NCBI GenBank assembly: GCA_027492255.1
Contig: JAPUFB010000004.1
Span: forward strand, 1 to 64,000
DNA length: 64,000 nucleotides
Direction: 5' to 3'
Source: Candidatus Saccharimonadota bacterium
GTDB lineage: Bacteria > Patescibacteriota > Saccharimonadia > Saccharimonadales > Saccharimonadaceae
This document shows, piece after piece, positions 6,819 to 55,063 of the stretch (positions are counted from its first letter, which is position 1; each line of letters begins with the position of its first letter). A program made the translations under genes and the position numbers. The notes under the pieces are model-generated. The model saw only the letters and a program-made list of their open reading frames with translations, did not search any database and had not been told where the DNA came from.

Positions 6819-6827
6819 GGAAATATT

Positions 6828-7269: not shown

Positions 7270-7809
7270 ATGAGTCTGAGTCGAATCGGAAAACTACCCA
7301 TCGAGATTCCATCCGGTGTGACAATCACGGTTGATTCTGGCGATGTGACCGTTAAAGGTCCAAAAGGTGAACTTAAGCAGTTCATCACGCCAGCCGTCAC
7401 CGTTAAAGTCGAGGATGGCGTTCTCACAGTCTCGCCAAAAGACGAGAGCAAGGTCGCACGTAGCCAACATGGCCTCATGCGTACCCTTATTAACAATATG
7501 GTTACAGGTGTTACGAAAGGCTTCGAAAAGAAGCTCGAAGTAAACGGTGTTGGCTTCCGCGTCAATGGTGGTGGTCAGAACCTTGAAATGTCACTCGGCT
7601 TTTCACACCCTGTGAAATACAGCGCTCCAGAAGGTGTTAATCTCCTGGTTGAGAAGATGAGTATTACTGTCAGCGGTATCAACAAGCAACAGGTTGGTCA
7701 GGTTGCTGCTGAAATCCGTTCACTTAAGAAACCTGAACCATACAAGGGTAAAGGTATTAAATATGCTGACGAAGTTATTATTCGTAAAGCAGGAAAGACG
7801 GGTAAATAG
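7270..7809 (+). CDS. rplF: 50S ribosomal protein L6
   Basis: Ribosomal protein uL6, 179 residues, near the sarcin-ricin loop. It opens MSLSRIGKLPIEIPSGV, contains two repeated alpha/beta domains, and ends with the typical KKPEPYKGKGIKY segment. I start it at ATG 7270 (AAAGGTAA upstream) rather than the in-frame ATG 7255, since homologues begin with M(S)RIGK. Full length. Confidence 0.97.
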   Translation: MSLSRIGKLPIEIPSGVTITVDSGDVTVKGPKGELKQFITPAVTVKVEDGVLTVSPKDESKVARSQHGLMRTLINNMVTGVTKGFEKKLEVNGVGFRVNGGGQNLEMSLGFSHPVKYSAPEGVNLLVEKMSITVSGINKQQVGQVAAEIRSLKKPEPYKGKGIKYADEVIIRKAGKTGK

Positions 7810-7812
7810 TAT

Positions 7813-8166
7813 ATGGCAAATCTCGCTACTAAACTACTTGGCCGAACGCTTCGTAAAGGCCGCGTTCGTTCTCGTGTCAGCGGTACGGCTGAACGCCCAC
7901 GTCTGACTGTGACAATTTCAAACATGCATGTCTCTGCTCAACTTATCGATGACGTTGCGGGCAATACACTTGCTGCTGCGACTACAGTCGGCAAGAAAGC
8001 AACCGGCACAATGACCGAACGAGCCGCAATTGTCGGTACGGAAATTGCAAAAAAAGCTAAAAAGGCAAAGATAACGACGGTCGTATTTGACCGCAACGGT
8101 CGTCAGTACGCCGGACGCCTCAGCGCGCTCGCCGATGCTGCACGCAAGGAAGGACTGGAGTTCTAA
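7813..8166 (+). CDS. rplR: 50S ribosomal protein L18
   Basis: Ribosomal protein uL18, 117 residues, binds 5S rRNA. Features: RVRSRVSGTAERPRLTVTISN near the N-terminus, VFDRNGRQYAGRLSALADAARKEGLEF at the C-terminus, both typical. It starts 3 nt after rplF. One base separates its stop from rpsE. Confidence 0.96.
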   Translation: MANLATKLLGRTLRKGRVRSRVSGTAERPRLTVTISNMHVSAQLIDDVAGNTLAAATTVGKKATGTMTERAAIVGTEIAKKAKKAKITTVVFDRNGRQYAGRLSALADAARKEGLEF

Positions 8167-8167
8167 T

Positions 8168-8830
8168 ATGGCTGAACACGCACAAACAACCGCTCCTGCA
8201 GCACGCGCTCATTCGGGTGGCCCTCGTCAGGATAACCGACGCGGTGGCGGTCCTCGCCGTAATGACCGTTCAAATGCTCCTCGTGAAGAAAAACTCTTTG
8301 AGGAAAATGTCATCTCGATCGACCGTGTTGCACGCGTCGTAAAAGGTGGCCGTCGTTTCCGCTTTAAAGCGCTCGTCGTCGTTGGCGACAAGAAGGCTAA
8401 GGTAGGTATCGGTGTTGCAAAGGGCGCAGACGTACAAGCTGCTGTCGCCAAAGCAACTGATGTTGCTAAGAAGCACATGATCACAATCCCACTTGTTAAC
8501 TCAACTATCCCACACGAAACAGAGATAAAATTGAGCGGCGCACGCGTCCTCATTAAGCCAGCTGCCCCAGGTACTGGTATTATCGCTGGTGGTGTCGTAC
8601 GAGCTGTCGTTGGCGTTACTGGCATCTCAAACCTGCTGTCAAAGAGTCTTGGCTCAACCAACAAGGTAAATATTGCCTACGCAACTATTGAAGCTCTCCG
8701 CTCACTTGTTCCAAAAAGCGAATGGCACACAACTGTCCATAACTTAGCGAACACTAAGAGTGCAGAGAAGAAACCTACAAAGGCCGTCAAAGCTGTCGCA
8801 GTTGAAACAGTCGCAGAAGGGAGCAACTAA
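8168..8830 (+). CDS. rpsE: 30S ribosomal protein S5 with arginine/glycine-rich extension
   Basis: Ribosomal protein uS5, 220 residues, at the mRNA entry and decoding region. The dsRBD-like domain (EENVISIDRVARVVKGGRRF) and the C-terminal domain with GIIAGGVVRAVVG and SLGSTNKVN are intact. It carries an R/G/N-rich N-terminal extension of ~40 residues and a basic C-terminal tail beyond the usual ~165 aa. ATG 8168 lies one base after rplR. Its stop overlaps the rplO start, so rpmD (L30), normally between them, is absent. Confidence 0.96.
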   Translation: MAEHAQTTAPAARAHSGGPRQDNRRGGGPRRNDRSNAPREEKLFEENVISIDRVARVVKGGRRFRFKALVVVGDKKAKVGIGVAKGADVQAAVAKATDVAKKHMITIPLVNSTIPHETEIKLSGARVLIKPAAPGTGIIAGGVVRAVVGVTGISNLLSKSLGSTNKVNIAYATIEALRSLVPKSEWHTTVHNLANTKSAEKKPTKAVKAVAVETVAEGSN

Positions 8831-9330
8831 TGAAATACAATGAACTAGAAGCCGCTCCTAACAAGAACCGCAAACGTGTTGGTCGCGGTATTGCCGCTGG
8901 TCAAGGTAAAACTGCTGGCCGTGGCACAAAAGGTCAAGGCGCACGTACAGGCAAGAAATTCGGCTCAACCTTCATGGGCGGCCAAGGGCCACTTGTACGA
9001 CGCATACCGAAAGCTAAGGGCTTCAAGTCACTCCGTGCTCCAGCACAAGTCGTGTATGCTGATCAGCTAAATGATCTTAAGGGTACGACCATTGATAATA
9101 TGTCTCTCTACGAAGCTGGACTCGTCAATACGCCATACCACACTGTTAAAATCATCGCTCGCGGTGAATATACAGGCAAGGCAATTGTGAAGGTTCAATC
9201 AGCAAGTGCAAGCGTAAGGGCTGCAATAACAAAGGCTGGTGGATCATTTGAAGCAGTTGATGTTCCAAATCTTCCTGCAAGTAAGGACGAAAAGAAGATC
9301 GAAGCACGAGAACGAGCAGCTAAAAAATAG
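8830..9330 (+). CDS. rplO: 50S ribosomal protein L15
   Basis: Ribosomal protein uL15, 166 residues, a late 50S assembly protein. The glycine-rich N-terminus (RKRVGRGIAAGQGKTAGRGTKGQGAR) is diagnostic, as is GGQGPLVRRIPK. It has a short charged tail. The start overlaps the rpsE stop. It is the last gene of this transcription block, followed by a strong hairpin. Confidence 0.96.
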   Translation: MKYNELEAAPNKNRKRVGRGIAAGQGKTAGRGTKGQGARTGKKFGSTFMGGQGPLVRRIPKAKGFKSLRAPAQVVYADQLNDLKGTTIDNMSLYEAGLVNTPYHTVKIIARGEYTGKAIVKVQSASASVRAAITKAGGSFEAVDVPNLPASKDEKKIEARERAAKK

Positions 9331-9338
9331 CCTAGCAA

Positions 9339-9382
9339 AATTTAATAACAGAGTATTCATGCGGATGCTCTGTTATTAAATT
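9339..9382 (+). terminator. long inverted repeat after rplO
   Basis: A 15-bp perfect stem (9339-9353 with 9368-9382) around a 14-nt loop closes the spc block. The stem is AT-rich and is followed only by TTGTATCT rather than a long T run, so read-through or 3'-end protection is also possible. Confidence 0.7.
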
Positions 9383-9443
9383 GTATCTATGAGATAACGA
9401 TTTATTATGTTCTCGCAAAAACACGATTTAACCTTCGCATATC

Positions 9444-9472
9444 TGGACAAATGTATCCCAAGGCGTTACTCT
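9444..9472 (+). promoter_or_regulatory. candidate promoter for secY
   Basis: TGGACA (9444-9449), 17-nt spacer, TACTCT (9467-9472). It is moderately close to consensus and well placed ~34 nt before the secY start. It indicates that secY is expressed separately from the spc block. Confidence 0.45.
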
Positions 9473-9505
9473 AGTATGAGTTAAAAGTAAAAGGGTAAAC
9501 ATATC

Positions 9506-10924
9506 ATGAACTGGCGAACTATCTTCGCGTCACTCAAAAACCGGGACATGCAGAAGCGACTGCTGATTGTTGTCGGTATTATTATTGTCTTTCGTTTTCT
9601 TTCTCAAATTCCTGTACCTCTCGCGGAGCCTACACAGCTGCGCCAGGTGATCGAGAACGCGATTAATGCGACTGATCTAGGTGGATTTATGAACCTTATC
9701 TCTGGAGGTGCCCTCTCAAGCCTCAGTATCGTGCTTGTTGGCCTCGGGCCATATATTACCGCATCGGTCATAACACAGCTCCTTACGAAAGCCATCCCAA
9801 GCCTCGAAGAGCTTCATAAAGATGGTGAAGCTGGCCGTCGTCGTATAAACCAGTGGACACGTATGTTGACCGTACCTCTTGCTATCCTGCAGTCAATTGC
9901 CTATATATTTATCATCCGTCAGGGGGTACTGGCAAATAATACTGCGGCTCTCGGGCAAATGGATGCATTTCAGTGGGTACTTGCTGTGAGTGCCATGTCT
10001 GCAGGTTCGATAATTATGATGTGGCTAGGTGAATTAGTGACCGAGCAGGGTATAGGTAACGGTATTTCGATGCTTATCTTTGCGGGTATCGTTTCACGCC
10101 TACCAAGCACATTCTCGACAATCTTTAGTTCATTAACAAACGTGCCAGATGAAGCCTCAAAACTGCATATATTTAATTGGTTTACGATACCAATCAATAG
10201 TCTTGCATTCTATGTACTATTAGCGATAGCCGCGGTAGGTATTGCCGTACTATATGTCCTTGTGAAGATCAATGAAGCTCAGCGAATTATTACCATCAAC
10301 TATGCAAAACGAGTCCAGGGAAATAGTGCCTACTCGGGAGTAAAAAGCATCCTTCCGGTTAAGCTCATCACCGCTGGTGTTATCCCGGTTATCTTCGCGG
10401 TTGCATTCTTGGCACTTCCAGCGTTCCTAGGGCAACTATTCCGTTCGATGCACGGCAACGCAGGTCTTGTAGCACTTGGAGAGAACTTAGTTAAGTGGTT
10501 CCAGACCCCGAGCGCAACTACTTTTGCACAAGCTACAGACTGGACAGTGATAGTCTATCCACTTGCATACTTCTTGCTTGTTGTCCTCTTTACGTACTTC
10601 TATACCGGCATCGTCTTCAATAGCAACGAGATTGCCGAAAACCTGCAAAAACAAGGGGGATTTATAGAGAATATTCGTCCTGGCCTGCAGACTGAGAAAT
10701 ATCTTGCTCGCACCGTAAATCGCCTCACATTGTTTGGCTCACTTGCCCTTGGTCTTATTGCTGTCCTCCCATTCGTCTTTGAATACATCTTTGGACAGTT
10801 AGGCATCAACACAGCCAATCTCGCTATCGGTGGTACTGGATTACTCATCGTTGTGTCTGTTGCACTCGAAACTCTTCGTCAAGTCAACTCACGTGCTCTC
10901 ATGGTCACATACGACAATTACTAG
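9506..10924 (+). CDS. secY: protein translocase subunit SecY
   Basis: The central channel of the Sec translocon, an inner-membrane protein with ten transmembrane helices; 472 residues, somewhat longer than the usual ~430. Diagnostic segments are FRFLSQIPVP at the first helix/plug region, GLGPYITASVITQLLTKAIPSLEEL in TM2, the QGIGNGISMLIFAGIVSRLPS segment and the cytosolic loop RIITINYAKRVQG. It lies after rplO as in most bacteria, but its own promoter and both flanking hairpins make it monocistronic, and it is not followed by adk or map. Its partner secE is at 44791. Confidence 0.96.
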   Translation: MNWRTIFASLKNRDMQKRLLIVVGIIIVFRFLSQIPVPLAEPTQLRQVIENAINATDLGGFMNLISGGALSSLSIVLVGLGPYITASVITQLLTKAIPSLEELHKDGEAGRRRINQWTRMLTVPLAILQSIAYIFIIRQGVLANNTAALGQMDAFQWVLAVSAMSAGSIIMMWLGELVTEQGIGNGISMLIFAGIVSRLPSTFSTIFSSLTNVPDEASKLHIFNWFTIPINSLAFYVLLAIAAVGIAVLYVLVKINEAQRIITINYAKRVQGNSAYSGVKSILPVKLITAGVIPVIFAVAFLALPAFLGQLFRSMHGNAGLVALGENLVKWFQTPSATTFAQATDWTVIVYPLAYFLLVVLFTYFYTGIVFNSNEIAENLQKQGGFIENIRPGLQTEKYLARTVNRLTLFGSLALGLIAVLPFVFEYIFGQLGINTANLAIGGTGLLIVVSVALETLRQVNSRALMVTYDNY

Positions 10925-10940
10925 ACGAAATGAAAAAGAA

Positions 10941-10969
10941 AATAACGGACTCAACCCCGTTATTTTTTA
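10941..10969 (+). terminator. rho-independent terminator of secY
   Basis: AATAACGG (10941-10948) pairs with CCGTTATT (10957-10964), followed by a T run. A classical intrinsic terminator. Confidence 0.85.
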
Positions 10970-11007
10970 TGGATTAATCGCATACATAGCCCAGTACATG
11001 AGCACTA

Positions 11008-11016
11008 TGCTATAGT
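11008..11016 (+). promoter_or_regulatory. extended -10 promoter for the 11039 gene
   Basis: TGC-TATAGT (11008-11016), no clear -35. The predicted start near 11023 leaves a short leader containing an AAGGGGGAT ribosome-binding site. Confidence 0.5.
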
Positions 11017-11038
11017 TAAAATATTAAGGGGGATATGT

Positions 11039-12178
11039 ATGAGTAAGTTAGAGAAAATGCTTGACGAGGGTGAACCAACGCCACTGCTCGAGAAAACATA
11101 TGATGACGATTCGGTTATCGTAACAAAATCAGGTATAAAAGAGCTTCGTCCCACGCCGAATAACGCCATAACACTTATATTACAATGGCTTACCTATGTG
11201 CTCTGGGGTGGAACCGCAATAGCACTCACGTGGCTCTCAACAGCCGTCTTTACGTATTTATTCAGTCAACACCAAGCAACCAGTGACATGTACGCGTATG
11301 GAGTGTCAAACGGTGCAACCGATATCATCTATCCAATGTCGGCGGCAATCGTTCTTTTATTGATGGCTCTTGTATGCGATTTCTTTTACAAAGGTCGTGA
11401 AACACTCCATAAGAGCAGTGTATCGATGGTAATTATGGTCGTACATGCAGTTGGCGCAACACTGTTTAGCGTTGGGTCGCTTATTGTTGCTGTTTTTATG
11501 GGCATTCAACTGCTGGCGAATATTACAAGTTCATCTGATATCGGAACAAAGGCAACACTCTTTGCCTCTCTTATCTCTTTAGTGCTGTGGGTTTTTGTGA
11601 CCGTGCGAATTCTGAGACCTGCAAAATTAAAATTTTGTCCATATGGCCTTTGGACACTGATGTCCCTCGCAACAATCGGACTAGTTATAACTGCTTGGGT
11701 AGGCCCATTAGCTAAGGAAGCATCACTGCGCAATGATCGGTTGATAGAGAATAATCTTAGCGAACTCAGTTCCTCTATTATTGCATTCACAGCAAAGCAT
11801 CAGGTACTACCGAGCAACCTTACAGAGCTAAGTGATCTCAGTGCGACTGCAAAAGAACTTGTGACAAAAAATCTTGTTGAATTTATTCCTGGCAAAGAAT
11901 TCACACCAGATGCGTACGATAAGACTATTAGTACAGATATATATCCACCCTTAACATCCACGAAGGCCTTTGAATACGATCTCTGTGTGACCTATAAAGA
12001 AAAGCAATGGCTTAGCGCCGGGTATAGTTACGCTAAAGATGGAAGTACAACCAGCACTGATCGTCAGACATATCCTTCAACGTACGGTCACGATGGAGGA
12101 CGAGTGTGTTACTACCTTGCCACCTCTTATAGCACGACATATCCAACACCGATTCCTCTTGCAGAACCAGTTATGTAG
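11039..12178 (+). CDS. polytopic membrane protein with C-terminal pilin-like domain
   Basis: Unknown function, 379 residues. After a ~45-residue charged cytosolic start there are four to five hydrophobic helices (about residues 45-225), reminiscent of DUF5671-type four-helix domains common in CPR bacteria. The C-terminal ~150 residues are outside the membrane and begin with an amphipathic helix (RNDRLIENNLSELSSSIIAFTAKH) like the stalk of type II/IV pseudopilins, ending with a Cys pair (YDLC…RVCYY) that could form a pilin-like disulphide loop. It occupies the place between secY and infA where many bacteria have adk and map. Shine-Dalgarno AAGGGGG supports ATG 11039. Function and fold are inference. 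Confidence 0.75.
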   Translation: MSKLEKMLDEGEPTPLLEKTYDDDSVIVTKSGIKELRPTPNNAITLILQWLTYVLWGGTAIALTWLSTAVFTYLFSQHQATSDMYAYGVSNGATDIIYPMSAAIVLLLMALVCDFFYKGRETLHKSSVSMVIMVVHAVGATLFSVGSLIVAVFMGIQLLANITSSSDIGTKATLFASLISLVLWVFVTVRILRPAKLKFCPYGLWTLMSLATIGLVITAWVGPLAKEASLRNDRLIENNLSELSSSIIAFTAKHQVLPSNLTELSDLSATAKELVTKNLVEFIPGKEFTPDAYDKTISTDIYPPLTSTKAFEYDLCVTYKEKQWLSAGYSYAKDGSTTSTDRQTYPSTYGHDGGRVCYYLATSYSTTYPTPIPLAEPVM

Positions 12179-12254
12179 CGTGATATAATTAGTCGCATAA
12201 ATAACAAAACAAACAACAAGCGATACTCTCGCCTGCCTAATTTGTCTGTATCTG

Positions 12255-12283
12255 TTTACATCGGTCACGTTTTCGTGTACAAT
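12255..12283 (+). promoter_or_regulatory. sigma70 promoter of infA, leader only ~9 nt
   Basis: TTTACA (12255-12260), 17-nt spacer, TACAAT (12278-12283). Transcription is expected at about 12290, so the infA mRNA has about nine leader bases and no Shine-Dalgarno. Confidence 0.75.
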
Positions 12284-12298
12284 GGCTAGCTGTAACTT

Positions 12299-12523
12299 AT
12301 GTCTAAAGATAAGGAAGTCATTAAACTACTTGGTAAGGTTGTGGAAGCACTGCCTAACGCTCAGTTTCGTGTCGAATTGGAAAATGGACATATGATTATC
12401 GCTCACGTGTCAGGGAAGATGCGCAAGCACTACATTAGGTTGGTGCCGGGCGATAAAGTCGAGGTTGAGTTAACCCCTTATGATCTTACAAAGGGTAGAA
12501 TCAGCTTCCGACTGCGAGATTAA
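12299..12523 (+). CDS. infA: translation initiation factor IF-1
   Basis: IF-1, 74 residues, an S1/OB-fold protein that binds the 30S A site during initiation. The sequence [18 protein letters not shown], then [19 protein letters not shown] and [14 protein letters not shown] match the family end to end. There is no Shine-Dalgarno before the ATG, and the promoter sits immediately upstream, so this initiation-factor gene itself is probably translated from a near-leaderless mRNA. It heads the rpmJ-rpsM-K-D-rpoA-rplQ-rplM-rpsI run. Confidence 0.97.
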
Positions 12524-45152: not shown

Positions 45153-45701
45153 ATGACAAATTCAAAACGTTACGATTCAACACGGCAATGGTATGCCGTT
45201 CATACCTACTCGGGTTACGAAGAAAAAGTGGGCGAAAGCATACAACAGCGTGTCGAATCTGTCGATATGGCAGATAAAATCTTTGGCGTTATGGTGCCAA
45301 AAGAAAAAATGATCGAGATCAAAAACGGTAAGAGAAAGGTTGTTGAAAAGAAAATTTTTCAAGGCTATGTGCTTGTCGATATGAAGATGACGGAAGATGC
45401 TTGGTATATTGTCCGTAATACACCTGGTGTTACAGGTTTTGTCGGTTCCGGAACGATGCCAACTCCTGTTTCAGACGCTGAGATCGCCAAGATCAAGAAG
45501 CGTATGGGTGTCGAAGATCCAAAACACCACATCGATTTCACTATTGGCGAAGTGGTCAATATTACCGACGGTCCATTTAAGGGCTTCGATGGTGCTATTA
45601 ATGAAATTGATACACAAAAAGGCAAGATTAAGGTTCTCGTGAGCATGTTCGGCCGTGAAACCCCGGTTGAACTCGACGCTCTGCAAGTTAAGAAGGTTTA
45701 A
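45153..45701 (+). CDS. nusG: transcription elongation/termination factor NusG
   Basis: 182 residues. N-terminal NGN domain (RQWYAVHTYSGYEEKVGESI… KKIFQGYVLVDM… WYIVRNTPGVTGFVGSG) and a C-terminal KOW domain (FTIGEVVNITDGPFKGFDGAINEID). It binds RNA polymerase and links it to Rho or ribosome. The start has AAAGGAAT upstream. The usual next gene, rplK, is displaced to 54638 by the inserted secretion operon. Confidence 0.95.
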   Translation: MTNSKRYDSTRQWYAVHTYSGYEEKVGESIQQRVESVDMADKIFGVMVPKEKMIEIKNGKRKVVEKKIFQGYVLVDMKMTEDAWYIVRNTPGVTGFVGSGTMPTPVSDAEIAKIKKRMGVEDPKHHIDFTIGEVVNITDGPFKGFDGAINEIDTQKGKIKVLVSMFGRETPVELDALQVKKV

Positions 45702-45707: not shown

Positions 45708-45941
45708 ATGACGCACCAAGCAAAGGAAGTGGTTGCGGTTATTGATGGCGGGGACCAGTATTCAATTTATTCTGACGTACTTGATGAAGCTAAACACCAA
45801 ACTCAAGAGGGAAAACTGATTGAATGCCTCGGACTCGTGGGGCTTAATACCTCTGTTACTCGATTTCGAGTTGAAAATGGTATACAGATCTATGATATGT
45901 ACGAGCGGAGTGAAAAATCTCAAATTACATCCAGCTTGTAA
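45708..45941 (+). CDS. hypothetical small protein after nusG
   Basis: 77 residues, not recognised. The N-terminal half looks like a short alpha/beta unit (EVVAVIDGGDQYSIYSDVLDEAKHQ), the C-terminal half contains LGLVGLNTSVTRFRVENGIQIYD. No signal peptide or catalytic motif. ATG 45708 lies 7 nt after the nusG stop with AGAAGG inside nusG as ribosome-binding site, so it is co-expressed. It ends before a hairpin. Confidence 0.65.
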   Translation: MTHQAKEVVAVIDGGDQYSIYSDVLDEAKHQTQEGKLIECLGLVGLNTSVTRFRVENGIQIYDMYERSEKSQITSSL

Positions 45942-45974: not shown

Positions 45975-45994
45975 GCCCGGCATCACAGCCGGGC
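45975..45994. terminator. hairpins between the nusG block and the secretion operon
   Basis: GCCCGGC (45975-45981) pairs with GCCGGGC (45988-45994). A second hairpin CCTTTG/CAAAGG follows at 45998-46013. They lie between convergent transcripts and can serve both. Confidence 0.7.
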
Positions 45995-46051: not shown

Positions 46052-47668
46052 CTAGACAGTGTATTCCGGGCGATTAATCTGTGCGAAGAAGCTGACCGGA
46101 TCGATCGTCTGGCTACCCCAGCCTGTATCAGGCAAGGTTGTATCGACGATCGTGAGATGGAGATGACACCCTGTTGCTGAACCAGTTGCACCAACAAGTC
46201 CAACTGTGTCACCCTTTGAGATATTCTGTCCCGGTTTCACACTTGCCGAAGCATTGTGCTCATACCGTGACACGTATCGTCCGTGTGATACCTCAACGAT
46301 CAAACCCCCGCCACCAGACTCGAAGTAAACCCGAGTCACGGCGCCGTTCTGGATCGCAAGATTTGGTGCTCCACACGGTGCTCCGTAATCCGTACCATCA
46401 TGCAGCTTCCACACTCCCTTAACGGGATGATAGCGCAATCCATACGCAGAGCTGATCGGGTACTTCGGGATAAGCCATGATCCACTCGGAGCTCCAGAGA
46501 ACACCGCATTGGATGAAAGGCTTTGTAGGGGCCTACTAGCACCGACGAATCGAGTCCAATAGTACCCACCCGGATCTCCTAGATCATAGACGCCGATCGC
46601 CTTACTGGGATTAGGTGCATGAAGCATCTGATTGTTTCCCCAGTAGATTCCAACGTGATCAACGGCGATGCCGTTATCCGCGATGGTATCAAAGAACAGG
46701 AGATCACCCTTTTGTAGGTTGCTTCTGGACACACTGTACGGCTTCGTGAACTCGTACTGTTGCTGGGCAACACGAGGAAGATTAATTCCTACGAGACCAA
46801 AAAGATACTGTGTGAGGCCAGAGCAATCAAAGGCATCACCTGGTGCCGAAGCACCAAGAATGTAGCGTGTACCAACTTGTGCGAGACCAGCATTGACGAT
46901 TGTCGTCAGCGCGTTACTTGTATTTTCGGCATAGAACCGTGCACAAAGATCAGCAATCCCAGAAACCTGCTGTGCAGTTATAGCACTACTAACGTCAGCG
47001 GAGCCAACGATAGCAGCTGCCAATACATCCCACCGCCATCGTGAAGCATAGGCCGCAGGATCAGGTCTCTGAACCTTCATCGCCAGCTCCATAAGAGGAA
47101 GTGATTCGCGCTCAGCAGCGGTCGTCTTACTCAGAAGAGCGTTGATGAACGCATTTGTCGCGTACACAGGGTCCATGATTTGGGTCACAGTACCCCAGCC
47201 TTGACTAGGCCGTTGCTGGAACAAGCCTACGCTGTCTCGATCACCACCAGTGAGATTATGCATGTCTGTTTCCTGGATTGAGGTGGCGAGAACAAGCGCG
47301 CGTTCACGAACCGAAAGGCCACGAGCCAATCCGACACGATTCATGATGTCGGCGTTGCTGAGTTGGTCAGGCTGCCGAAACTCTGGTACCTTTCCGTACA
47401 TGCTCGTACTGACAGACAAGCCGTCAGTCTTAGCAATAATGGAGGTAACAGGGTTGGAAATCATCAAGGATAAATCTCTGGAATTTCCGTATGCTGAAGG
47501 ACTCGGAGATGGGGAGTTGCCTCCACTATCACCACCGCCCACATAAGGAGCACAGATTGCGGGAAGCGATTCTCCGGTTGCGATGATGACTGCGGTCGTG
47601 GCGACTACAGCACCGCATGCTGGCAACCCCAGAACGAGCAAGAATGTTGCCCACTTTCTCAGCTTCAT
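46052..47668 (-). CDS. secreted three-module cell-wall hydrolase of the secretion operon
   Basis: 538 residues. An N-terminal membrane anchor or lipobox-like segment (residues ~8-31, LPACG) and a P/S/G linker are followed by three modules. (1) ~115-225: a transglycosylase-like region with SIQETDMHNL and GGDRDSVGLFQQRPSQGWG, typical of actinobacterial wall hydrolases (candidate catalytic Glu133). (2) ~255-380: NlpC/P60 cysteine peptidase with DCSGL (Cys282) and VDHVGIY (His338). (3) ~405-525: M23/LytM zinc peptidase with HDGTD (His423, Asp427) and HLH (His502, His504). Glycan and peptide cuts in one protein would open a passage for a secretion channel, perhaps through the host wall. Start ATG 47668 has GAGGTGA upstream. 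Last gene of the operon. Confidence 0.88.
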   Translation of the reverse strand: MKLRKWATFLLVLGLPACGAVVATTAVIIATGESLPAICAPYVGGGDSGGNSPSPSPSAYGNSRDLSLMISNPVTSIIAKTDGLSVSTSMYGKVPEFRQPDQLSNADIMNRVGLARGLSVRERALVLATSIQETDMHNLTGGDRDSVGLFQQRPSQGWGTVTQIMDPVYATNAFINALLSKTTAAERESLPLMELAMKVQRPDPAAYASRWRWDVLAAAIVGSADVSSAITAQQVSGIADLCARFYAENTSNALTTIVNAGLAQVGTRYILGASAPGDAFDCSGLTQYLFGLVGINLPRVAQQQYEFTKPYSVSRSNLQKGDLLFFDTIADNGIAVDHVGIYWGNNQMLHAPNPSKAIGVYDLGDPGGYYWTRFVGASRPLQSLSSNAVFSGAPSGSWLIPKYPISSAYGLRYHPVKGVWKLHDGTDYGAPCGAPNLAIQNGAVTRVYFESGGGGLIVEVSHGRYVSRYEHNASASVKPGQNISKGDTVGLVGATGSATGCHLHLTIVDTTLPDTGWGSQTIDPVSFFAQINRPEYTV

Positions 47669-47674
47669 GTTTCA

Positions 47675-48217
47675 TCACCTCGTTTCAGTCTCTGAGAAGA
47701 CACGCCACGCACCATTCTGTAGTACCCAAGTTGTGTTGTGGGGTACCGTGAATGTGTTGACGCGCTTTCCATCGCGCATACTTGCAACAGCCAATAGCGC
47801 AGTAACATACATCACATCGCCATCGAACTCGGTCCTGAATACCGTCTCCGACCCGAGGACATACTTCAGGCTGAGCTGTGCTGTTTCCGCAGGGCTTGTG
47901 CCATTTATCTCGGGGATTGTCGACATGTACTGTGACGTCACATACGGCTCAAGCGCCGTGCGACGACTTTGAGCGTCAGCGATCAACCACGCATTTTCAA
48001 ACGCGTAGATACGCTCTCGCAATCCGACGCTAGTTTGCATTGACGGAGTTCGTGTGCTTGGATGAGCAGTAACTGCTACAGAAGCTGTTGGCGTTACGGG
48101 TGGGGGAGTGGTGCTGTTACCTTTCGGAATTTGCACCACCACCCACACCACAAACGCTACAATCACACTAACTACCGCCACAATAACTACGGGATGAACC
48201 CTGTAGCTACGTGACAT
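47675..48217 (-). CDS. VirB8/TcpC-like bitopic protein
   Basis: 180 residues. Short cytosolic N-terminus, one transmembrane helix (VVIVAVVSVIVAFVVWVVV), a proline/threonine linker and an extracytoplasmic ~120-residue alpha/beta domain with a VirB8/NTF2-like look (LRERIYAFENAWLIADAQSRRTALEPYVTSQYMSTIP… WVLQNGAWRVFSE). VirB8/TcpC proteins are bitopic scaffolds of the type IV secretion inner complex. The identification rests on topology, size and operon position, not on a signature motif. Starts 9 nt after the ATPase with AAGGAG. Confidence 0.6.
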   Translation of the reverse strand: MSRSYRVHPVVIVAVVSVIVAFVVWVVVQIPKGNSTTPPPVTPTASVAVTAHPSTRTPSMQTSVGLRERIYAFENAWLIADAQSRRTALEPYVTSQYMSTIPEINGTSPAETAQLSLKYVLGSETVFRTEFDGDVMYVTALLAVASMRDGKRVNTFTVPHNTTWVLQNGAWRVFSETETR

Positions 48218-48226
48218 TTCTTCTCC

Positions 48227-49618
48227 TTAGTGGATGCGTCTGCGGCCACTGAGGACCGCCTCGTTAGCAGATTCCGACTGCGCGACGGTAAGCACATCAT
48301 GCGTCATCGCGTGATGGAACCGTCGGCTGCCATACTCGCTATTCCGTAGCACGAACTCAAAGCCACCTTGCTCGTAGCCTGGAATCGCAGCAGCTCGGTC
48401 TGGTGAGACATTCCACGAACTCACGAGTTCTTCGCGATTCGCTTCTGTGTCCGGCATAGCACCGATAAACATACCGTCAGTACCTTGTGATACGCGATCA
48501 GACAAGCGTCGCAGATATGAATCCGGCTCACCAGCCTTAATACCCGACAAAGTTTGCGTTGTAGAGGCCTCGAAGGTGAATGTCGAACGCGACTTTGCAT
48601 AACGCGCTGCTTTCGCTTCGAGGACTGGCTTGATCATCATACTCTCGTGATCTTCCTCACTCACAAGAATAGTCGGGATGATCTCTTTGATCCCTCCGAC
48701 AACCGCCGCAGTATCAAAGCTGAGCATAATGGTATGCATCAGGTTCGCCATTTCTTCTTCAACACCCGTCCAGTCGAGCACAAGTGCCGGCATCGTCAAG
48801 ATATCATACATAGACTGACGTCCACTGAACATCTCGCCATGAACACCGCTGATTACCTGCATCAGAGCGGCGTTCATATTACTAGCCGAACGCTTTAGCT
48901 GTGTCATATCTGTTGTCAAATCAGGTCGCCCCATGAGCAGATTTAACTGCGCACGAATCGTAGGATCACCCTCGAGTTCCTCTTGATGATTGCTCAAAAG
49001 CTGCTGGGCAAAACCTTCGAAATAACGACTGTGATCGTCATCATTAAGCTTGCGGAGTTGTTCCGCCATCACGTCTGGTGCTGCAATCTTTTCGAGCGAG
49101 CTCCCATAGATCATGTCAGCAGCGATCTGCAATGTCAGATTCTCGTACACATCAATCGAGCGTCCGAGCACAATCTCGATAACCTTCTTTGACAAACCGA
49201 GTAGTGTCACTCGATCTTTTACAAGACGTGGATCGAAGATGTTGAGCCGCTGGTCCTTGAGAGGAACTGTTGTACAACCCAACGCGCGAGCAAGAGGTGC
49301 CCACTCGGGCTGCCCGTTTTCAGGCTTCCTATCGTTGATTCGCACCTTAGGCTGCCCACCTTCATAGGTCTGTAGCATCATCAGGAGCGAAACAATGGTC
49401 TTGAGAAGCGCAGTTTTACCTGCACCTTTTTGCCCAAAGAAGTGGTAGATCATCGAACTTGTGATCCTTAGGACTTTGAGTACCCATGGGTCAAAGTAGA
49501 ATGGCCTACCGAACTCATCTGGCCCCAGCGACATGCCTTCTTTAAGCAACATCGGGGGAATGGCTGTCGTTGCGACGGTAGCAGCCTCCAAGGGCATGCC
49601 AGTAAACCCACGCATCAT
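48227..49618 (-). CDS. VirB4/TraC-type secretion ATPase (C-terminal ATPase half)
   Basis: 463 residues. Walker A FGQKGAGKT (residues 62-69), a Walker B-like strand ALVLDWTGVEEE, and a C-terminal RecA/HerA-like region. It corresponds to the motor domain of VirB4/TraC; the N-terminal domain of VirB4 seems to be encoded by the preceding gene. It powers assembly or substrate transfer in type IV secretion. I start at ATG 49618, 8 nt after AAAGGAGG (a second ATG follows directly); the in-frame extension to 49690 lies before that site. Preceded by a 170-nt spacer with two hairpins. Confidence 0.85.
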   Translation of the reverse strand: MMRGFTGMPLEAATVATTAIPPMLLKEGMSLGPDEFGRPFYFDPWVLKVLRITSSMIYHFFGQKGAGKTALLKTIVSLLMMLQTYEGGQPKVRINDRKPENGQPEWAPLARALGCTTVPLKDQRLNIFDPRLVKDRVTLLGLSKKVIEIVLGRSIDVYENLTLQIAADMIYGSSLEKIAAPDVMAEQLRKLNDDDHSRYFEGFAQQLLSNHQEELEGDPTIRAQLNLLMGRPDLTTDMTQLKRSASNMNAALMQVISGVHGEMFSGRQSMYDILTMPALVLDWTGVEEEMANLMHTIMLSFDTAAVVGGIKEIIPTILVSEEDHESMMIKPVLEAKAARYAKSRSTFTFEASTTQTLSGIKAGEPDSYLRRLSDRVSQGTDGMFIGAMPDTEANREELVSSWNVSPDRAAAIPGYEQGGFEFVLRNSEYGSRRFHHAMTHDVLTVAQSESANEAVLSGRRRIH

Positions 49619-49692
49619 GGTGACTGCCTCCTTTATAGGCTTGGTTTCGAATGTTAAGTTGCTGTACCGGGCTAATGCATGTTCCGACACCG

Positions 49693-49773
49693 CACAAATA
49701 TAACGAAGTGTTATTCCTTAGATTTGTGTGATGCCGGAGTGGGAAAGTCGATGATTCGACCAACCCACTCCGG
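49693..49773 (-). promoter_or_regulatory. two strong intercistronic hairpins in the secretion operon
   Basis: CCGGAGTGGG (49734-49743) pairs perfectly with CCCACTCCGG (49764-49773), with an inner GTCGA/TCGAC. Downstream on the reverse strand, CACAAAT (49693-49699)/ATTTGTG (49722-49728) with inner ATAAC/GTTAT forms a second hairpin. No T tract, so they are more likely RNA-processing or stability elements than terminators. They separate the SCO6880-like gene from the ATPase gene in an otherwise closely packed operon. Confidence 0.6.
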
Positions 49774-49788
49774 TTGCACTTCCTTTTA

Positions 49789-51366
49789 TCACAACATCCT
49801 CCCCAATCCTGCACTCACGAACAGCAAGGGGAGTTGGAGCGACTGGCCAGATACGACCGTCGCTTTGAAACCGTGCTGCTGCAGCTTGGCCTGCACCTGG
49901 TCAATCGCGTCATTGAGCGCCTTGTCATTTGTCGCTGTCAGCGCAATGAGTGGTATGTACTTGACTTGCCACGCACCGCTCTCAAACAGTTCACTGCGAC
50001 GCCTCTGACTCTCTTCACCCTGCTTTCGTACAGCTGGATCATCCAAGAATTGACGGTTGAAGATACCCTCGAGCAACGAACGCCCGATAGGAATACCCCA
50101 ACGCAAGAATGTTGATTCTTGCGCAACGTCGATCTTGACCATTGTATTAGACAGTGTCATCCAGACAGGACTCCGTCCGGCCTTACCACGCAGCTGCATG
50201 AGCTGCGGCCAGAAAGTATTGGGAACTTCCTGAGGCTGCTCTGTAATCTTGAGTACACAGAATGGTCGGTCATCCAGATATAGTCGAGTTCTGGTTGCTC
50301 GAATGGATGTCTCCGGCATGTAGTGCTTATCGCTTGCACCGGACTCGAACATATCATCGAATTCACCCGTATGGAACCTCTCGCGGTAGCGAGCAATTCC
50401 ACTCCCAACGTCCCAATGCTCGCGAATGTAGAGTGCGAGCTCGGTGGCGTCCAGAGTTTCAGGATTTCCAAAGCCCTGATCCGCTAGTAGACGTCTTGCA
50501 AGAGGCTCGATCGAAACGATCGGCTGCCGGTTAATCAGCTCTCGCTGTTGTTCGGGCGATCGCTTCGCATTTCTGCGGCTGTCAAGATCATCCTTGCGTC
50601 CGATCGTAACAACAAATGCCACAGTAACCTTGCGGGTGTTAATCGCGGTAACCCTTGCATTCTGAGATGCCACACGACGCAGATAGACCAGCTCTTGCCC
50701 ACGGGGTGTAGTTGTGTCTATCGTCCCACGGTACACCTCCTCTCGGAGGTTATTCTTGTAGGACTCGTGGATGTGATAGACGTCATGGCTACGACTCATA
50801 AACACCGTCGTAACCTTGACGGATAATCCGGATGAGACATTGAGCAGGTTTGCGGCAACTACACCCGCACGCGCAAGCTCTTGTTGCTGTTGTCCGGGGG
50901 TTGTTGACAGTAGGTTTCTGCCGTCACAATATATAACGAACGAATCCGTCATACGTGTTGGGTCATAGAAGAGACCGATAAGACCATCAGCCGTCTCGAT
51001 TTCGTCAAGACGATAGGCTAACGGCTCCTTAGAGCGCTTCTTTGCCTCTCGACGGTGTAGGAACGATGCTGAGGCATCGGGGTTGTACACCTCCCAAACC
51101 ACTCCACGTCTATTCCAGATACGGAGATCAGCTGGTAGTTGGCGAAAAAGTATCTCGTAGCAACGTCCCATTTCGAATGGATAGACACTCACAATTGCTA
51201 CCGAGATACCTACGACCATTAAAAGCGCCTGTTGATGGATTGCGTTTCCAAGCAGCCCAAAGCACGCCACGATCGAGACCATAACAACCCACTCCTTGAG
51301 ACCGAGTGGGAAAAAGCCTGAACGCTCAGTGGGATGAACCGGGATTCGCCGTCGTGGATCAGTCAT
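49789..51366 (-). CDS. PrgI/VirB4-N-like (SCO6880-type) secretion protein
   Basis: 525 residues. Residues ~10-60 contain two transmembrane helices in the PrgI/VirB3 style (GFFPLGLKEWVVMVSIVACFG; QALLMVVGISVAIVSVYPF). The following ~460 soluble residues look like the N-terminal domain of VirB4 and have no Walker motif. This architecture matches the actinobacterial SCO6880-type conjugation proteins. It would join the inner-membrane platform to the VirB4-C motor. ATG 51366 overlaps the preceding stop (ATGACTGA) and is preferred over the longer in-frame ORF from 51411. Confidence 0.72.
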   Translation of the reverse strand: MTDPRRRIPVHPTERSGFFPLGLKEWVVMVSIVACFGLLGNAIHQQALLMVVGISVAIVSVYPFEMGRCYEILFRQLPADLRIWNRRGVVWEVYNPDASASFLHRREAKKRSKEPLAYRLDEIETADGLIGLFYDPTRMTDSFVIYCDGRNLLSTTPGQQQQELARAGVVAANLLNVSSGLSVKVTTVFMSRSHDVYHIHESYKNNLREEVYRGTIDTTTPRGQELVYLRRVASQNARVTAINTRKVTVAFVVTIGRKDDLDSRRNAKRSPEQQRELINRQPIVSIEPLARRLLADQGFGNPETLDATELALYIREHWDVGSGIARYRERFHTGEFDDMFESGASDKHYMPETSIRATRTRLYLDDRPFCVLKITEQPQEVPNTFWPQLMQLRGKAGRSPVWMTLSNTMVKIDVAQESTFLRWGIPIGRSLLEGIFNRQFLDDPAVRKQGEESQRRRSELFESGAWQVKYIPLIALTATNDKALNDAIDQVQAKLQQHGFKATVVSGQSLQLPLLFVSAGLGRML

Positions 51367-52504
51367 TTTCGCCCGCATTCTGTCTTTCGACTCGACGAGT
51401 TGGAGTATCAAACTGGTTAGCGGCGATCTTCATCGCTAACGCAATCTCAGGATGACCGGCTGCAGCAACAACAGGAGCTGCGGCCGTCAACTTGTCAGAG
51501 ATTGGACTCGGACTAGACGGGCTGGCAGGGTTCAATGATGTATCATCCTTAGACTCTCCACGCTGAATAGCGTCAAGCGCCGTTGAAGGCACATCAGCTC
51601 CGCCATCCTGTTGACCATCTACCAAAGTAACTGGGTTGTCGATCGTCGCGTCAATATCTCCGTCCTCGATATCCGTCTTCGTCTTAACTGTGTTGTCGAC
51701 GTCAGTGTTGCCATGCTTCGGTGGGCTACTAGGACCACCACCTGAACCAGACCGGTTCTTGACAATGACATCTATGCCCACTGCCGCAATAATGATGGCT
51801 GGGACAATAAGCACAGCAGCTAACATCAGCAGAAAACCCCAACCGCTGGTCGGGATTCCGTTGTCATTGCCAGATTCGATAGACGCCCCGTATAGCCAGT
51901 AAAGCAACGGGTAGCCAAGGATCCCTGTCGTGATAACGGTGTAGAGACTAAACCGCATGAGACGCTGTCCGATGCCCTTGAGCCAGATCAGCGCGATTCC
52001 CACCAGTAGCAACGTGGATGCAATCCACAGTAGATAAGGTAGAAGAATGAGCTCTGCGTTGAGGATCGAACCGACAGCGCCATAGGCCATGATCGTGATA
52101 AACAGGGTTCCGATGAGTGGGGAGTCTCCAGTTCCAGCCGTAACTGGTGGAAGACCCTTAGCACCAACGAAATCAAGCACCACTGGCATGAATGACGGTA
52201 TCAGCTCAAAGAGCAACCATCCGATGACCGAGAATCCTGCGTTCAGCAGGATAACGACACCGAACACGTACAGAGCCTGTCGGGGGCTGTCAAGATTGAA
52301 CATCGTGAGGATAGGTAGCATTAGCACGAGGGCTATTGCTACACAAATCAGGATGCCGATGGCAAAACCACCAACATCATTGAACAGGTTCGCTACCCAG
52401 CTAGGCACAGCGAAAGAGCTCATGGGTGACTCAAGCATCGCACGAATCGACGCGTACAGCTTGTCGATTTCTTTTGCGAATTCCTCAATTCCGAAAATGT
52501 CCAT
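51359..52504 (-). CDS. TrbL/VirB6-like polytopic channel protein
   Basis: 381 residues. About six hydrophobic helices between residues ~45 and 250 (for example FAIGILICVAIALVLMLPILTMF, GVVILLNAGFSVIGWLLFELI, LLPYLLWIASTLLLVGIALIWL, FLLMLAAVLIVPAIIIAAVGI), then a ~130-residue low-complexity acidic/serine-proline tail. VirB6/TrbL proteins form the inner-membrane channel of type IV secretion; topology, size and neighbours fit. AGGAG precedes the start. It lies after the pilin gene, separated by a hairpin. Confidence 0.75.
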   Translation of the reverse strand: MDIFGIEEFAKEIDKLYASIRAMLESPMSSFAVPSWVANLFNDVGGFAIGILICVAIALVLMLPILTMFNLDSPRQALYVFGVVILLNAGFSVIGWLLFELIPSFMPVVLDFVGAKGLPPVTAGTGDSPLIGTLFITIMAYGAVGSILNAELILLPYLLWIASTLLLVGIALIWLKGIGQRLMRFSLYTVITTGILGYPLLYWLYGASIESGNDNGIPTSGWGFLLMLAAVLIVPAIIIAAVGIDVIVKNRSGSGGGPSSPPKHGNTDVDNTVKTKTDIEDGDIDATIDNPVTLVDGQQDGGADVPSTALDAIQRGESKDDTSLNPASPSSPSPISDKLTAAAPVVAAAGHPEIALAMKIAANQFDTPTRRVERQNAGEND

Positions 52505-52524
52505 TGGTCTCCTAGTCTTTGTTG

Positions 52525-52558
52525 TTTCTGTGGCGCGCCCGAGGACGCGCCACAGAAA
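52525..52558 (-). promoter_or_regulatory. strong hairpin between pilin and channel genes
   Basis: A perfect 13-bp GC-rich stem (52525-52537 with 52546-52558) directly after the pilin stop. It lacks a T run, so a 3'-end stabiliser or partial terminator is likely, which would raise pilin over the downstream proteins. Confidence 0.6.
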
Positions 52559-52562
52559 TCCC

Positions 52563-52910
52563 TCAACACACCCAGAAGGATGTGATGAGGGCGACGATCA
52601 CCGCGGCGAGGACAAAGAGCAACAGTGACATCGCGAACTTTGTCAGTACTTCCTTGCCCGCCTTGGTCCAGATGAGGATCGCGAGAGCCAAAGTGACCAC
52701 CGCCAGAAGAACAAGGGCGATACCCGTGATAATCGGGCCAACTGTCTCTACCAACCCCCAGAGGGAATTGAAGAACTTCTGAACCGCCGAGTTACTGCAG
52801 TTCGGCGTGTAGTCCGGGGGGGCGGACACCGCAAGCGGCGCCGTCATGAACATGATCAGCAGCGACAGGAAAGCCGTCTTCGTGACGACACCCGTCTTTC
52901 GGTTTGACAT
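52563..52910 (-). CDS. VirB2/TrbC-like pilin-like membrane protein
   Basis: 115 residues. A Sec signal peptide (about 1-30, cleavage after VSA) followed by a short polar segment with a Cys and two hydrophobic helices (GLVETVGPIITGIALVLLAVVTLALAILIW; KFAMSLLLFVLAAVIVALITSFWV). Signal peptide plus two helices at this size and position is the VirB2/TrbC major-pilin layout. It ends with a Cys. Followed by a strong hairpin, fitting a need for higher amounts than its neighbours. AAAGGAC is the ribosome-binding site. Confidence 0.75.
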   Translation of the reverse strand: MSNRKTGVVTKTAFLSLLIMFMTAPLAVSAPPDYTPNCSNSAVQKFFNSLWGLVETVGPIITGIALVLLAVVTLALAILIWTKAGKEVLTKFAMSLLLFVLAAVIVALITSFWVC

Positions 52911-52920
52911 TTCTGTCCTT

Positions 52921-54195
52921 TCAGATCTTGCCTGAAGAAGTCAGGCGGGGGGTTCCACTGGGGATATTGAGTGGAGGAACGTAGATTCTCTGAGAGACCG
53001 TAGCCTGCTCAAGCAGGTGTACCGCGATCTCCAGAATCGCCTGTAGCGTCTCTGGCGCAATCTTCCACAGATTGCACGGTTGCATGGACGCGATATACGG
53101 GTCATATGGCACTTCCATACCACGACCCTTCCAGGCGAAAGTATCCTCTTCGAACACGCTCTGAACCCGAGTTGAGCGGGTCAGGGTATCGAAGTTTGTT
53201 GGCTCCGACTGATCCGTGACACCCGACATAACGACAGTTGCTACTTGGGTCTTGCGAGCGATCGTCACTGCAGTGCCCGGCATGGGCTCAGCACTTGACT
53301 CTGGAAGTCCGATCAACTGTTTTCCAGTCGACAAGCCATTCATAGTCTTACTGAGAGTCCCTGCCGATTCGGGTACGGTTCGTGTCGCCACGAGGGTAAT
53401 CTGGTCGGCAGCCTGAGCTGCCAACACTGCTACACTGTGGCGTTCGATATTATCGTTCCCGAGATCAAGAATGAGAACCTGCGTCAGCGGATAGAGCATT
53501 CGCAGCATATTCAGAAAAGAACTGAACGTCTGCAGCTGATCATTTCCCGCTGCGCTATTGTCATCAATGACGCTCCCCGCATCCTCCGAGATAATCCCAA
53601 CTCCGTGGGGAGTCTTCGGGATCGACCTTGAAAGTTTACGGAACGTGTCGTAATCATACAGGTGCGAGATCAACCGGCTAACTGACAGTCGTTCGCTCTC
53701 GGGGATACCTGCTCGATCAGCCAAAGTTGACGTAGCCGTATTGGCTGTCGTCGGTGCAATGATGACAAAGCAACGCGTGAACTCGGCAATCACAGATGCG
53801 ATATACAAAGCAAGCGTCGTCTTGCCACCCTTCATGATGTTGCCAAAGGCCAGCACCGGCGCAACTCCGAGATTGATGAGCTGACGCAAGCGAGCAATGA
53901 GGTAAGCCTGACGCTGCCAAAACGCCTCACGTCGAAGAATTTCTTCCTCTTGACGATTCAGGCGAGGTACTCGGTTAGGAGGAACCACGCCATTATATCG
54001 ACGCATCAACATCCTGTATCGGAGTGCCGGCATTCCCTTAGTGGGAATGCGAGGCTGAACAGCCAAAGTATCCTGAGCCTCGCTCTTTGGGACACTGACT
54101 GGTGTACTTGGCGAAGTGACAGGCAACTGAGATGTACCAGAGTCTCTAGGCGGAACGGCACTGTAGCGCATTCCCGTGCTTGATGAGGCAGACAT
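52921..54195 (-). CDS. MinD/ParA-like (SIMIBI) ATPase heading the secretion operon
   Basis: 424 residues. A ~90-residue disordered P/S/T-rich and basic N-terminus, then a P-loop domain with the deviant Walker A KGGKTT (residues 122-127, GNIMKGGKTTLALYIA) typical of ParA/MinD proteins, a Walker B-like VLILDLGNDN and downstream switch regions. Related ATPases position pili, flagella or secretion machines at the pole (CpaE, FlhG, MinD types). ATG 54195 follows GGAAAGGTGG; the in-frame extension to 54291 lies within the promoter region. First gene of the operon. Confidence 0.82.
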   Translation of the reverse strand: MSASSSTGMRYSAVPPRDSGTSQLPVTSPSTPVSVPKSEAQDTLAVQPRIPTKGMPALRYRMLMRRYNGVVPPNRVPRLNRQEEEILRREAFWQRQAYLIARLRQLINLGVAPVLAFGNIMKGGKTTLALYIASVIAEFTRCFVIIAPTTANTATSTLADRAGIPESERLSVSRLISHLYDYDTFRKLSRSIPKTPHGVGIISEDAGSVIDDNSAAGNDQLQTFSSFLNMLRMLYPLTQVLILDLGNDNIERHSVAVLAAQAADQITLVATRTVPESAGTLSKTMNGLSTGKQLIGLPESSAEPMPGTAVTIARKTQVATVVMSGVTDQSEPTNFDTLTRSTRVQSVFEEDTFAWKGRGMEVPYDPYIASMQPCNLWKIAPETLQAILEIAVHLLEQATVSQRIYVPPLNIPSGTPRLTSSGKI

Positions 54196-54637: not shown

Positions 54638-55063
54638 ATGGCTAAAAAAATTATCGGTAATCTTAAGCTTCGTGTACCAGGTGGCCGCGCCACTGCAGGT
54701 CCTCCAGTAGGCTCAACATTAGGCCAATGGGGACTTAATATGATGGATTTCATCAATCCATTCAATGAAGCAACTAAAGAATATAACGGCAAAGATGTGA
54801 TCGTTCATATCCAGGTCTTTGAAGACCGAACCTTTACATGGAACTGTCTTGGACGTCCTGTTGATGAATTGATCATGGAAAAAACTGGCATCAAAAAAGG
54901 GTCAGGAAAACCTCACTCTGATAAGGTTGGTAAGATTACTCGTGCCCAACTCGAGGAAATCGCCAATGAAAAGATGACGCTACTCAACGCAAACGATCTT
55001 GAAGCAGCAGTAAAAGTTATCGCCGGCACTGCCCGTTCAATGGGCGTTACTGTCGAAAAATAA
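54638..55063 (+). CDS. rplK: 50S ribosomal protein L11
   Basis: Ribosomal protein uL11, 141 residues, base of the L7/L12 stalk (GTPase-associated region). KLRVPGGRATAGPPVGSTLGQWGLNMMDF and the C-terminal rRNA-binding part GKPHSDKVGKITRAQLEEIA…VIAGTARSMGVTV are diagnostic. AAGGAAAC is the ribosome-binding site. It is a single-gene transcript here, with own promoter and terminator; the usual neighbours nusG and rplA are 9 kb upstream and 2.6 kb downstream. Confidence 0.96.
   Translation: MAKKIIGNLKLRVPGGRATAGPPVGSTLGQWGLNMMDFINPFNEATKEYNGKDVIVHIQVFEDRTFTWNCLGRPVDELIMEKTGIKKGSGKPHSDKVGKITRAQLEEIANEKMTLLNANDLEAAVKVIAGTARSMGVTVEK

What the first reader, a model, noticed from the sequence alone, without database searches (positions are those of the whole stretch)
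46052..54195. Actinobacterial-style type IV secretion-like operon in a CPR genome
Seven reverse-strand genes in order: a MinD/ParA-like ATPase, a VirB2-like pilin, a TrbL/VirB6-like channel, a PrgI/VirB4-N-like (SCO6880-type) protein, a VirB4-C ATPase, a VirB8/TcpC-like protein and a three-module wall hydrolase. Seen: topologies, Walker motifs, hydrolase motifs. Inference: in an episymbiont whose known hosts are Actinobacteria, this machine is a good candidate for host attachment, DNA uptake or effector transfer. No relaxase or VirD4 coupling protein is in the window, so it need not be a conjugation system.
Basis: partly seen in the sequence, partly recalled or inferred. Interest (0 to 1): 0.85.

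Follow-up and report, generated by a model that had tools for sequence, protein, structure and literature searches.

The report
Borrowed conjugation pore in an epibiont
This tiny symbiotic bacterium carries, besides the secretion machine its relatives have, a second and rare one built like the DNA-transfer machinery of actinobacterial plasmids but without the parts that load DNA, so it probably does something other than mating.

Summary
Seven intact minus-strand genes (46052-54195) form a type IV secretion (T4SS) cassette: ParA-like protein, VirB2-like pilin, VirB6-like channel, SCO6880-type protein, short VirB4, VirB8-like protein and SLT-like/NlpC-P60/M23 wall hydrolase. The SCO6880-type protein and the short VirB4 are the two halves of one VirB4.

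It is not the genome's main T4SS. The canonical Patescibacteria system lies beside dnaN/dnaA on another contig. The cassette is a second, accessory system, found in 14 of 393 Saccharibacteria-class genomes, in nearly constant gene order at different sites. Here it is inserted between nusG and rplK, has the highest GC on its contig, and is missing from both congeners.

Its closest relatives are tra operons of actinobacterial MOBF plasmids (shared order Par-pilin-VirB6-SCO6880-VirB4). The short VirB4s form one clade that groups with those plasmids, not with canonical Patescibacteria VirB4. No cassette has VirD4; no carrier has a MOBF or PF03432 relaxase.

Best reading: a conjugation pore related to actinobacterial plasmids, now used without DNA loading, probably for contact-dependent envelope breaching or export.

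The parts
52921..54195 (-). ParA/MinD-like protein (424 aa from ATG 54195), with a proline-rich N-terminal extension; first gene of the cassette
   Evidence: Profile of 13 relatives hits Soj/MinD/FleN structures (best E 4e-8); 8-9 of 13 members hit CbiA/AAA_31; the profile finds Par of MOBF plasmids at E 1e-16 to 7e-26. This copy has a degenerate Walker A.
52563..52910 (-). VirB2-like pilin candidate (115 aa, signal/TM plus two TM segments)
   Evidence: Topology and position conserved in 13 loci; weak similarity only
51359..52504 (-). VirB6/TrbL-like polytopic membrane protein (381 aa, about 7 TM)
   Evidence: Topology and synteny; profile against MOBF-plasmid VirB6-like proteins gives probability up to 79%; no Pfam hit
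49789..51411 (-). SCO6880-type protein: two N-terminal TM segments, C-terminal third = VirB4 N-terminal domain; start may be ATG 51363
   Evidence: hhalign: canonical VirB4 residues 44-200 match residues 368-533, probability 88%; profile hits N-terminal domains of VirB4s of other classes; one of 13 relatives hits NF042935 SCO6880_fam, E 1.8e-9
48227..49690 (-). Short VirB4: C-terminal ATPase domain only (487 aa)
   Evidence: hhalign: canonical VirB4 residues 217-605 match residues 34-475, probability 99.3%; profile best PDB hit VirB4 4ag5, E 8e-6; Walker A at residue 86
47675..48217 (-). VirB8/TcpC-like bitopic protein (180 aa, one TM, NTF2-like domain)
   Evidence: AlphaFold model pLDDT 65; Foldseek hits include PrgL VirB8 domain 7aed (E 2e-3, prob 1.00) and TraM of pIP501 (4ec6)
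46052..47668 (-). Modular wall hydrolase (538 aa): membrane anchor, SLT-like module, NlpC/P60, M23
   Evidence: Pfam; catalytic motifs; best-covered plasmid matches all actinobacterial
45975..45994 (.). 7-bp GC-only stem-loop with T-rich flanks on both strands; candidate bidirectional terminator closing the cassette
   Evidence: consensus match only
45153..45701 (+). nusG, left flank of the insertion
   Evidence: Congener G001 has nusG and rplK 417 bp apart; here 8.9 kb
54638..55063 (+). rplK (ribosomal protein L11), right flank of the insertion

Best explanation
The seven genes are a horizontally acquired mating-pore cassette that shares ancestry with the tra operons of actinobacterial MOBF plasmids. 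It has lost, or never took in, the coupling protein VirD4 and the relaxase. Mechanism, inferred from the families: the two halves of VirB4 (the SCO6880-type protein and the short ATPase) assemble at the membrane and power assembly of the pilin and the VirB6/VirB8 channel. The anchored hydrolase opens the wall of the cell itself and probably of the contacted cell. Without VirD4 the machine most likely works as a contact-dependent pilus/channel or a two-step exporter of already secreted proteins, among them possibly the modular hydrolase itself, rather than as a DNA conveyor. Shown: gene set, order, split VirB4, insertion site, plasmid kinship, absence of VirD4 from the cassette and of two relaxase families from the genome. 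Inferred: pilus, target cell, substrate.
For: Conserved order in 13 loci, with VirB8 missing in two. Split VirB4. Colinearity with MOBF plasmids of Tessaracoccus, Brachybacterium, Tomitella, Rhodococcus, Kitasatospora. Tree: 14 cassette VirB4s form one clade (100/99), joined with seven plasmid VirB4s against canonical Patescibacteria and Firmicutes (98/84). Insertion: empty site in the congener, GC 0.523 against 0.457 +/- 0.015. Hydrolase kinship with actinobacterial plasmids, and a Pimelobacter MOBF-plasmid hydrolase with the same unusual EEP insertions as carrier G104. No MOBF (PF08751) or PF03432 relaxase in 14 carriers. Separate canonical T4SS in the same genome.
Against: No function was tested. 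Pilin and VirB6 rest mainly on topology and position. The class-general VirD4-like protein could serve in trans. The Par protein of this copy has a degenerate nucleotide site, which could mean decay. Cassette branches are long, so the direction of transfer and the donor are unsure.
Confidence: 0.68

Rival explanations
1. Host-attachment or effector machine central to the episymbiotic life style.
For: Secretion and pilus components are present; in Southlakia epibionticum the (other) T4SS is essential for epibiotic growth (PMC10633639).
Against: Present in only 14 of 393 class genomes and absent from both congeners; the canonical T4SS is present in the same genome.
Confidence: 0.12
2. Functional conjugation or mobilisation, with the class-general VirD4-like protein and an unrecognised relaxase acting in trans; the cassette may spread by it.
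For: Relatives are conjugation operons; the cassette tree is scrambled against taxonomy; a VirD4-like gene exists in most carriers.
Against: No PF03432 or PF08751 relaxase in 14 carriers; no integrase noticed next to the cassettes and no flanking repeats at this one; the VirD4-like protein is present without the cassette too.
Confidence: 0.15
3. DNA uptake machine, like the VirD4-less ComB system of Helicobacter pylori.
For: Same lack of VirD4; ComB takes up DNA without it (PMC12857230).
Against: In a cultured relative transformation depends on comEC, and type IV pili are credited with competence (PMC12857230); relatives live without the cassette.
Confidence: 0.1
4. Decaying remnant of an integrated actinobacterial plasmid.
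For: Degenerate Walker A in this Par copy and in some others; long branches; no recombination genes left.
Against: All ORFs intact in this genome and in 12 others at low identity; Walker A of VirB4 kept in nearly all copies; same gene set kept across several families.
Confidence: 0.1
5. Cell-envelope or chromosome function inside the bacterium, as proposed for the Streptomyces cmdABCDEF cluster.
For: cmdB, C and D resemble SCO6878, SCO6880 and SCO6881, and CmdB is VirB4-like; mutants are defective in sporulation and chromosome segregation (PMC2782261).
Against: The cassette also has a pilin candidate, a VirB8-like protein and a wall hydrolase; Saccharibacteria do not sporulate (own knowledge).
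Confidence: 0.06

Closest known systems
tra operons of actinobacterial MOBF plasmids (e.g. Tessaracoccus NZ_CP019608, Brachybacterium NZ_CP022318, Tomitella NZ_CP041766, Rhodococcus pR1CP2 NZ_CP009113)
   Same: ParA, pilin-size protein, VirB6-like, SCO6880-type and short VirB4 in the same order; wall hydrolase in or near the operon in several
   Different: The plasmids have VirD4 just after VirB4 and a MOBF relaxase; the cassette has neither, and its VirB8-like and hydrolase genes follow VirB4
Canonical Patescibacteria T4SS (PMC12102498), present in this genome at G000:C1 about 82.9-98.5 kb
   Same: Pilins, VirB6, VirB4 and hydrolases; no relaxase reported for most
   Different: Undivided 638-aa VirB4, separate PrgI and TrsD, seven pilins, beside dnaN/dnaA; VirB4 in another clade
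Streptomyces cmdABCDEF and SCO6871-6884 clusters (PMC2782261)
   Same: Chromosomal VirB4-like plus SCO6880-type plus membrane proteins
   Different: No pilin, VirB8 or hydrolase is described in the passages read; role is differentiation
VirD4-less T4SSs: Ptl, Brucella VirB, ComB, Bartonella Trw (PMC12857230)
   Same: VirB machine without a coupling protein
   Different: Diderm systems; not related at the operon level

Membership tests
Type IV secretion system | VirB4 ATPase | tested here: met
   Split over two genes; hhalign 88% and 99.3% to canonical VirB4; PDB 4ag5
Type IV secretion system | VirB8-like NTF2-fold bitopic protein | tested here: met
   Model of moderate confidence (pLDDT 65); Foldseek PrgL/TraM/DotI among top hits, best E about 1e-3, mixed with other NTF2-like folds
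Type IV secretion system | VirB6-like polytopic protein | tested here: inconclusive
   Topology and synteny; profile probability 44-79% to plasmid proteins, no Pfam hit
Type IV secretion system | VirB2-like pilin | tested here: inconclusive
   Topology and position only
Actinobacterial SCO6880-type (MOBF plasmid) tra operon | Order Par-pilin-VirB6-SCO6880-VirB4 | tested here: met
Actinobacterial SCO6880-type (MOBF plasmid) tra operon | VirB4 groups with that clade rather than with canonical Patescibacteria | tested here: met
   98/84 support
Actinobacterial SCO6880-type (MOBF plasmid) tra operon | VirD4 next to VirB4 | tested here: not met
   Absent from this cassette and from the 12 others read
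Conjugation system | Relaxase | tested here: not met
   PF03432 and PF08751: 0 of 14 carriers; other MOB families not tested
Canonical Patescibacteria T4SS | VirB4 in the Patescibacteria clade, with PrgI and TrsD | tested here: not met
ParA/MinD family | Deviant Walker A KGGxxK[ST] | tested here: not met
   This copy reads NIMKGGKTT; 8 of the 13 aligned copies keep the motif; fold family supported by profile
VirD4-less protein exporter | Secreted substrate | not testable with these tools
   needs experiment

The most novel reading that the evidence does not exclude
Epibionts of Actinobacteria captured the mating pore of actinobacterial plasmids, dropped the DNA-loading parts, and use it with an exchangeable, multi-domain wall hydrolase (with nuclease/phosphatase-like or glycosidase insertions in some carriers) to breach or dose actinobacterial cells; the cassette moves between Saccharibacteria as an accessory weapon or host-range module.
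Probability: 0.27. Interest if true: 0.85.

Novelty: new variant of a known kind. Interest (0 to 1): 0.62.

Why it matters
How Patescibacteria act on their hosts is a main open question, and attention has been on one T4SS. This cassette is a second T4SS of separate origin, related to plasmids of the phylum in which their known hosts lie, and without DNA-loading parts. It gives a concrete gene set for testing whether epibionts reuse host-phylum conjugation machinery. Surveys that rely on full-length VirB4 models could miss it, because its VirB4 is split in two and hits standard families only weakly.

Tried and rejected
AlphaFold for the SCO6880-type protein failed (pLDDT 40), so its assignment rests on profile comparisons. 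TrsD gave no match to the middle of the SCO6880-type protein and PrgI only 17%, so a PrgI-TrsD-VirB4N fusion is not claimed. No relatives in viral contigs or phages. No direct repeats of 10 bp or more flank the cassette and no tRNA is adjacent, so no integration mechanism is proposed. The weak hits of the VirB4 profile in about 140 further genomes were rejected as canonical VirB4s, mostly of 600 aa or more. Outside the class, hits of the SCO6880-type profile are only VirB4 N-domains.
Full report
WHAT IS THERE. Seven intact minus-strand ORFs fill 46052-54195. Only the last has clear Pfam domains: NlpC/P60 and M23, with catalytic motifs in place. The other six are almost invisible to Pfam and NCBIfam taken singly, so relatives were collected.

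THE GENOME. The window is part of an 854-kb, 99%-complete genome. The genome has a canonical Patescibacteria T4SS on contig C1: seven pilins, VirB6, PrgI, TrsD, a 638-aa VirB4, a large M23 protein and a further hydrolase-like protein, beside dnaN and dnaA (gene names from the description in PMC12102498). The window's operon is therefore a second system.

DISTRIBUTION. A profile of the short VirB4 gives a bimodal result over 393 class genomes: 13 with strong hits to a protein of about 440-550 aa (E 1e-13 or better), and about 140 weak hits, nearly all confined to the P-loop region of ordinary VirB4s. A profile of the SCO6880-type protein (S80) finds 14 carriers and none outside the class in a sample of 380 phylum genomes. 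Both congeners lack it. Neighbourhoods of 13 carriers show the order Par-pilin-VirB6-S80-VirB4-VirB8-hydrolase throughout, with VirB8 missing in two (G182, G202), among different neighbouring genes. The 14th carrier, G106, was seen only in part (VirB6-S80-VirB4).

INSERTION. In congener G001 nusG and rplK are 417 bp apart; here they are 8.9 kb apart with the cassette between them on the opposite strand. The cassette has GC 0.523 and holds the most GC-rich 8.1-kb window of a 275-kb contig whose other windows average 0.457 (sd 0.015). No flanking repeats or neighbouring integrase were found. It is best read as a horizontally acquired island of unknown integration route.

WHAT THE PROTEINS ARE. 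The two central proteins are the halves of one VirB4. Against the canonical VirB4 alignment, residues 44-200 match the end of S80 (368-533, probability 88%) and residues 217-605 match the short VirB4 (34-475, probability 99.3%). Independent profile searches give the same division in VirB4s of other classes. The best PDB hit of the short protein is VirB4 4ag5, and one S80 relative hits the SCO6880 family model. The VirB8 assignment rests on a moderate AlphaFold model whose Foldseek hits include PrgL, TraM and DotI domains, mixed with other NTF2-like folds. The Par profile hits Soj/MinD/FleN, but this genome's copy lacks the full deviant Walker A. VirB6 and the pilin rest on topology and position.

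WHERE IT COMES FROM. The only plasmid matches to the window's short VirB4 are two Arthrobacter-group plasmids with SCO6880, TraC and VirD4 genes. The best-covered hydrolase matches are all actinobacterial. From these, plasmids of Tessaracoccus, Brachybacterium, Tomitella, Rhodococcus, Kitasatospora, Miniimonas and Cellulosimicrobium were read. Five of them (the first five) carry a Par homologue (profile E 1e-16 to 7e-26) followed by a pilin-size protein, a one-TM protein, a VirB6-like protein, an SCO6880-type protein, a short VirB4 and VirD4, with a MOBF relaxase nearby or typed on the plasmid. In a 42-sequence tree the 14 cassette VirB4s form one clade (100/99) that joins seven of the plasmid VirB4s against canonical Patescibacteria and Firmicutes (98/84); the Arthrobacter-type VirB4 falls just outside that join. 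Branches are long, so donor and direction are inferred, not shown. Carriers of one genus fall in different parts of the cassette clade (G303 and G140; G106 against G182 and G202), which points to transfer among Saccharibacteria.

WHAT IS MISSING. No cassette contains VirD4. The ~900-aa VirD4-like protein of these genomes is also present in genomes without the cassette, a congener included, so it is not the cassette's own. Relaxase families PF03432 and PF08751 have no match in 14 carriers.

A VARIABLE LAST GENE. The hydrolase differs in modules between carriers: M23 in most; NlpC/P60 in several; CHAP in G365; one or two endonuclease/exonuclease/phosphatase (EEP) domains with catalytic motifs in G019, G203 and G104; a GH3 domain in G067. 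A Pimelobacter MOBF plasmid encodes a hydrolase that, by reading its open frame, has EEP-like segments on both sides of the SLT-like module plus M23, beside VirD4 and a MOBF relaxase. Variation of this gene is thus shared with the plasmid relatives. Matching the target envelope is a possible reason, but that is inference.

MECHANISM AND LIMITS. VirD4-less T4SSs are known or proposed as two-step exporters, adhesive pili or DNA-uptake machines (PMC12857230). By analogy the cassette most likely forms a contact-dependent pilus/channel with local wall opening. The substrate is unknown. A general role in epibiosis is unlikely because most relatives lack the cassette; an accessory role toward particular hosts or competitors is open. 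In the library searched, SCO6880 is mentioned in a single paper, on Streptomyces, and the Patescibacteria T4SS passages read do not describe such a cassette. That paper's supplementary tables could not be read, so single entries there cannot be excluded.

Noticed in passing
L138 (NZ_CP108778, Embleya plasmid) 4383-12438: VirB4 39% identical to the canonical Saccharibacteria VirB4, with PrgI, VirD4, a replication-relaxation protein and NlpC/P60; sister to the Patescibacteria VirB4s in the tree (88/89). A possible lead on the origin of the canonical Patescibacteria T4SS.
   Followed up: partly
L061 5500-8664; L060 5788-8247; L022 8058-10322: Cassette hydrolases with inserted EEP (nuclease/phosphatase-like) domains, two in G104, with GDFNS and SDHP motifs.
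   Followed up: partly
L068 5453-8302: Cassette hydrolase with a GH3 domain beside NlpC/P60.
   Followed up: no
L069 11995-19896: Five large uncharacterised minus-strand genes next to the cassette of G202.
   Followed up: no
window 45708-45941: 77-aa ORF directly after nusG, not found in the congener's nusG-rplK gap by tblastn; may have come with the insertion.
   Followed up: no
window 48227-49690: In this copy the Walker B region reads SEED where most relatives have a DE pair; with the degenerate Par site, a possible sign of drift.
   Followed up: no
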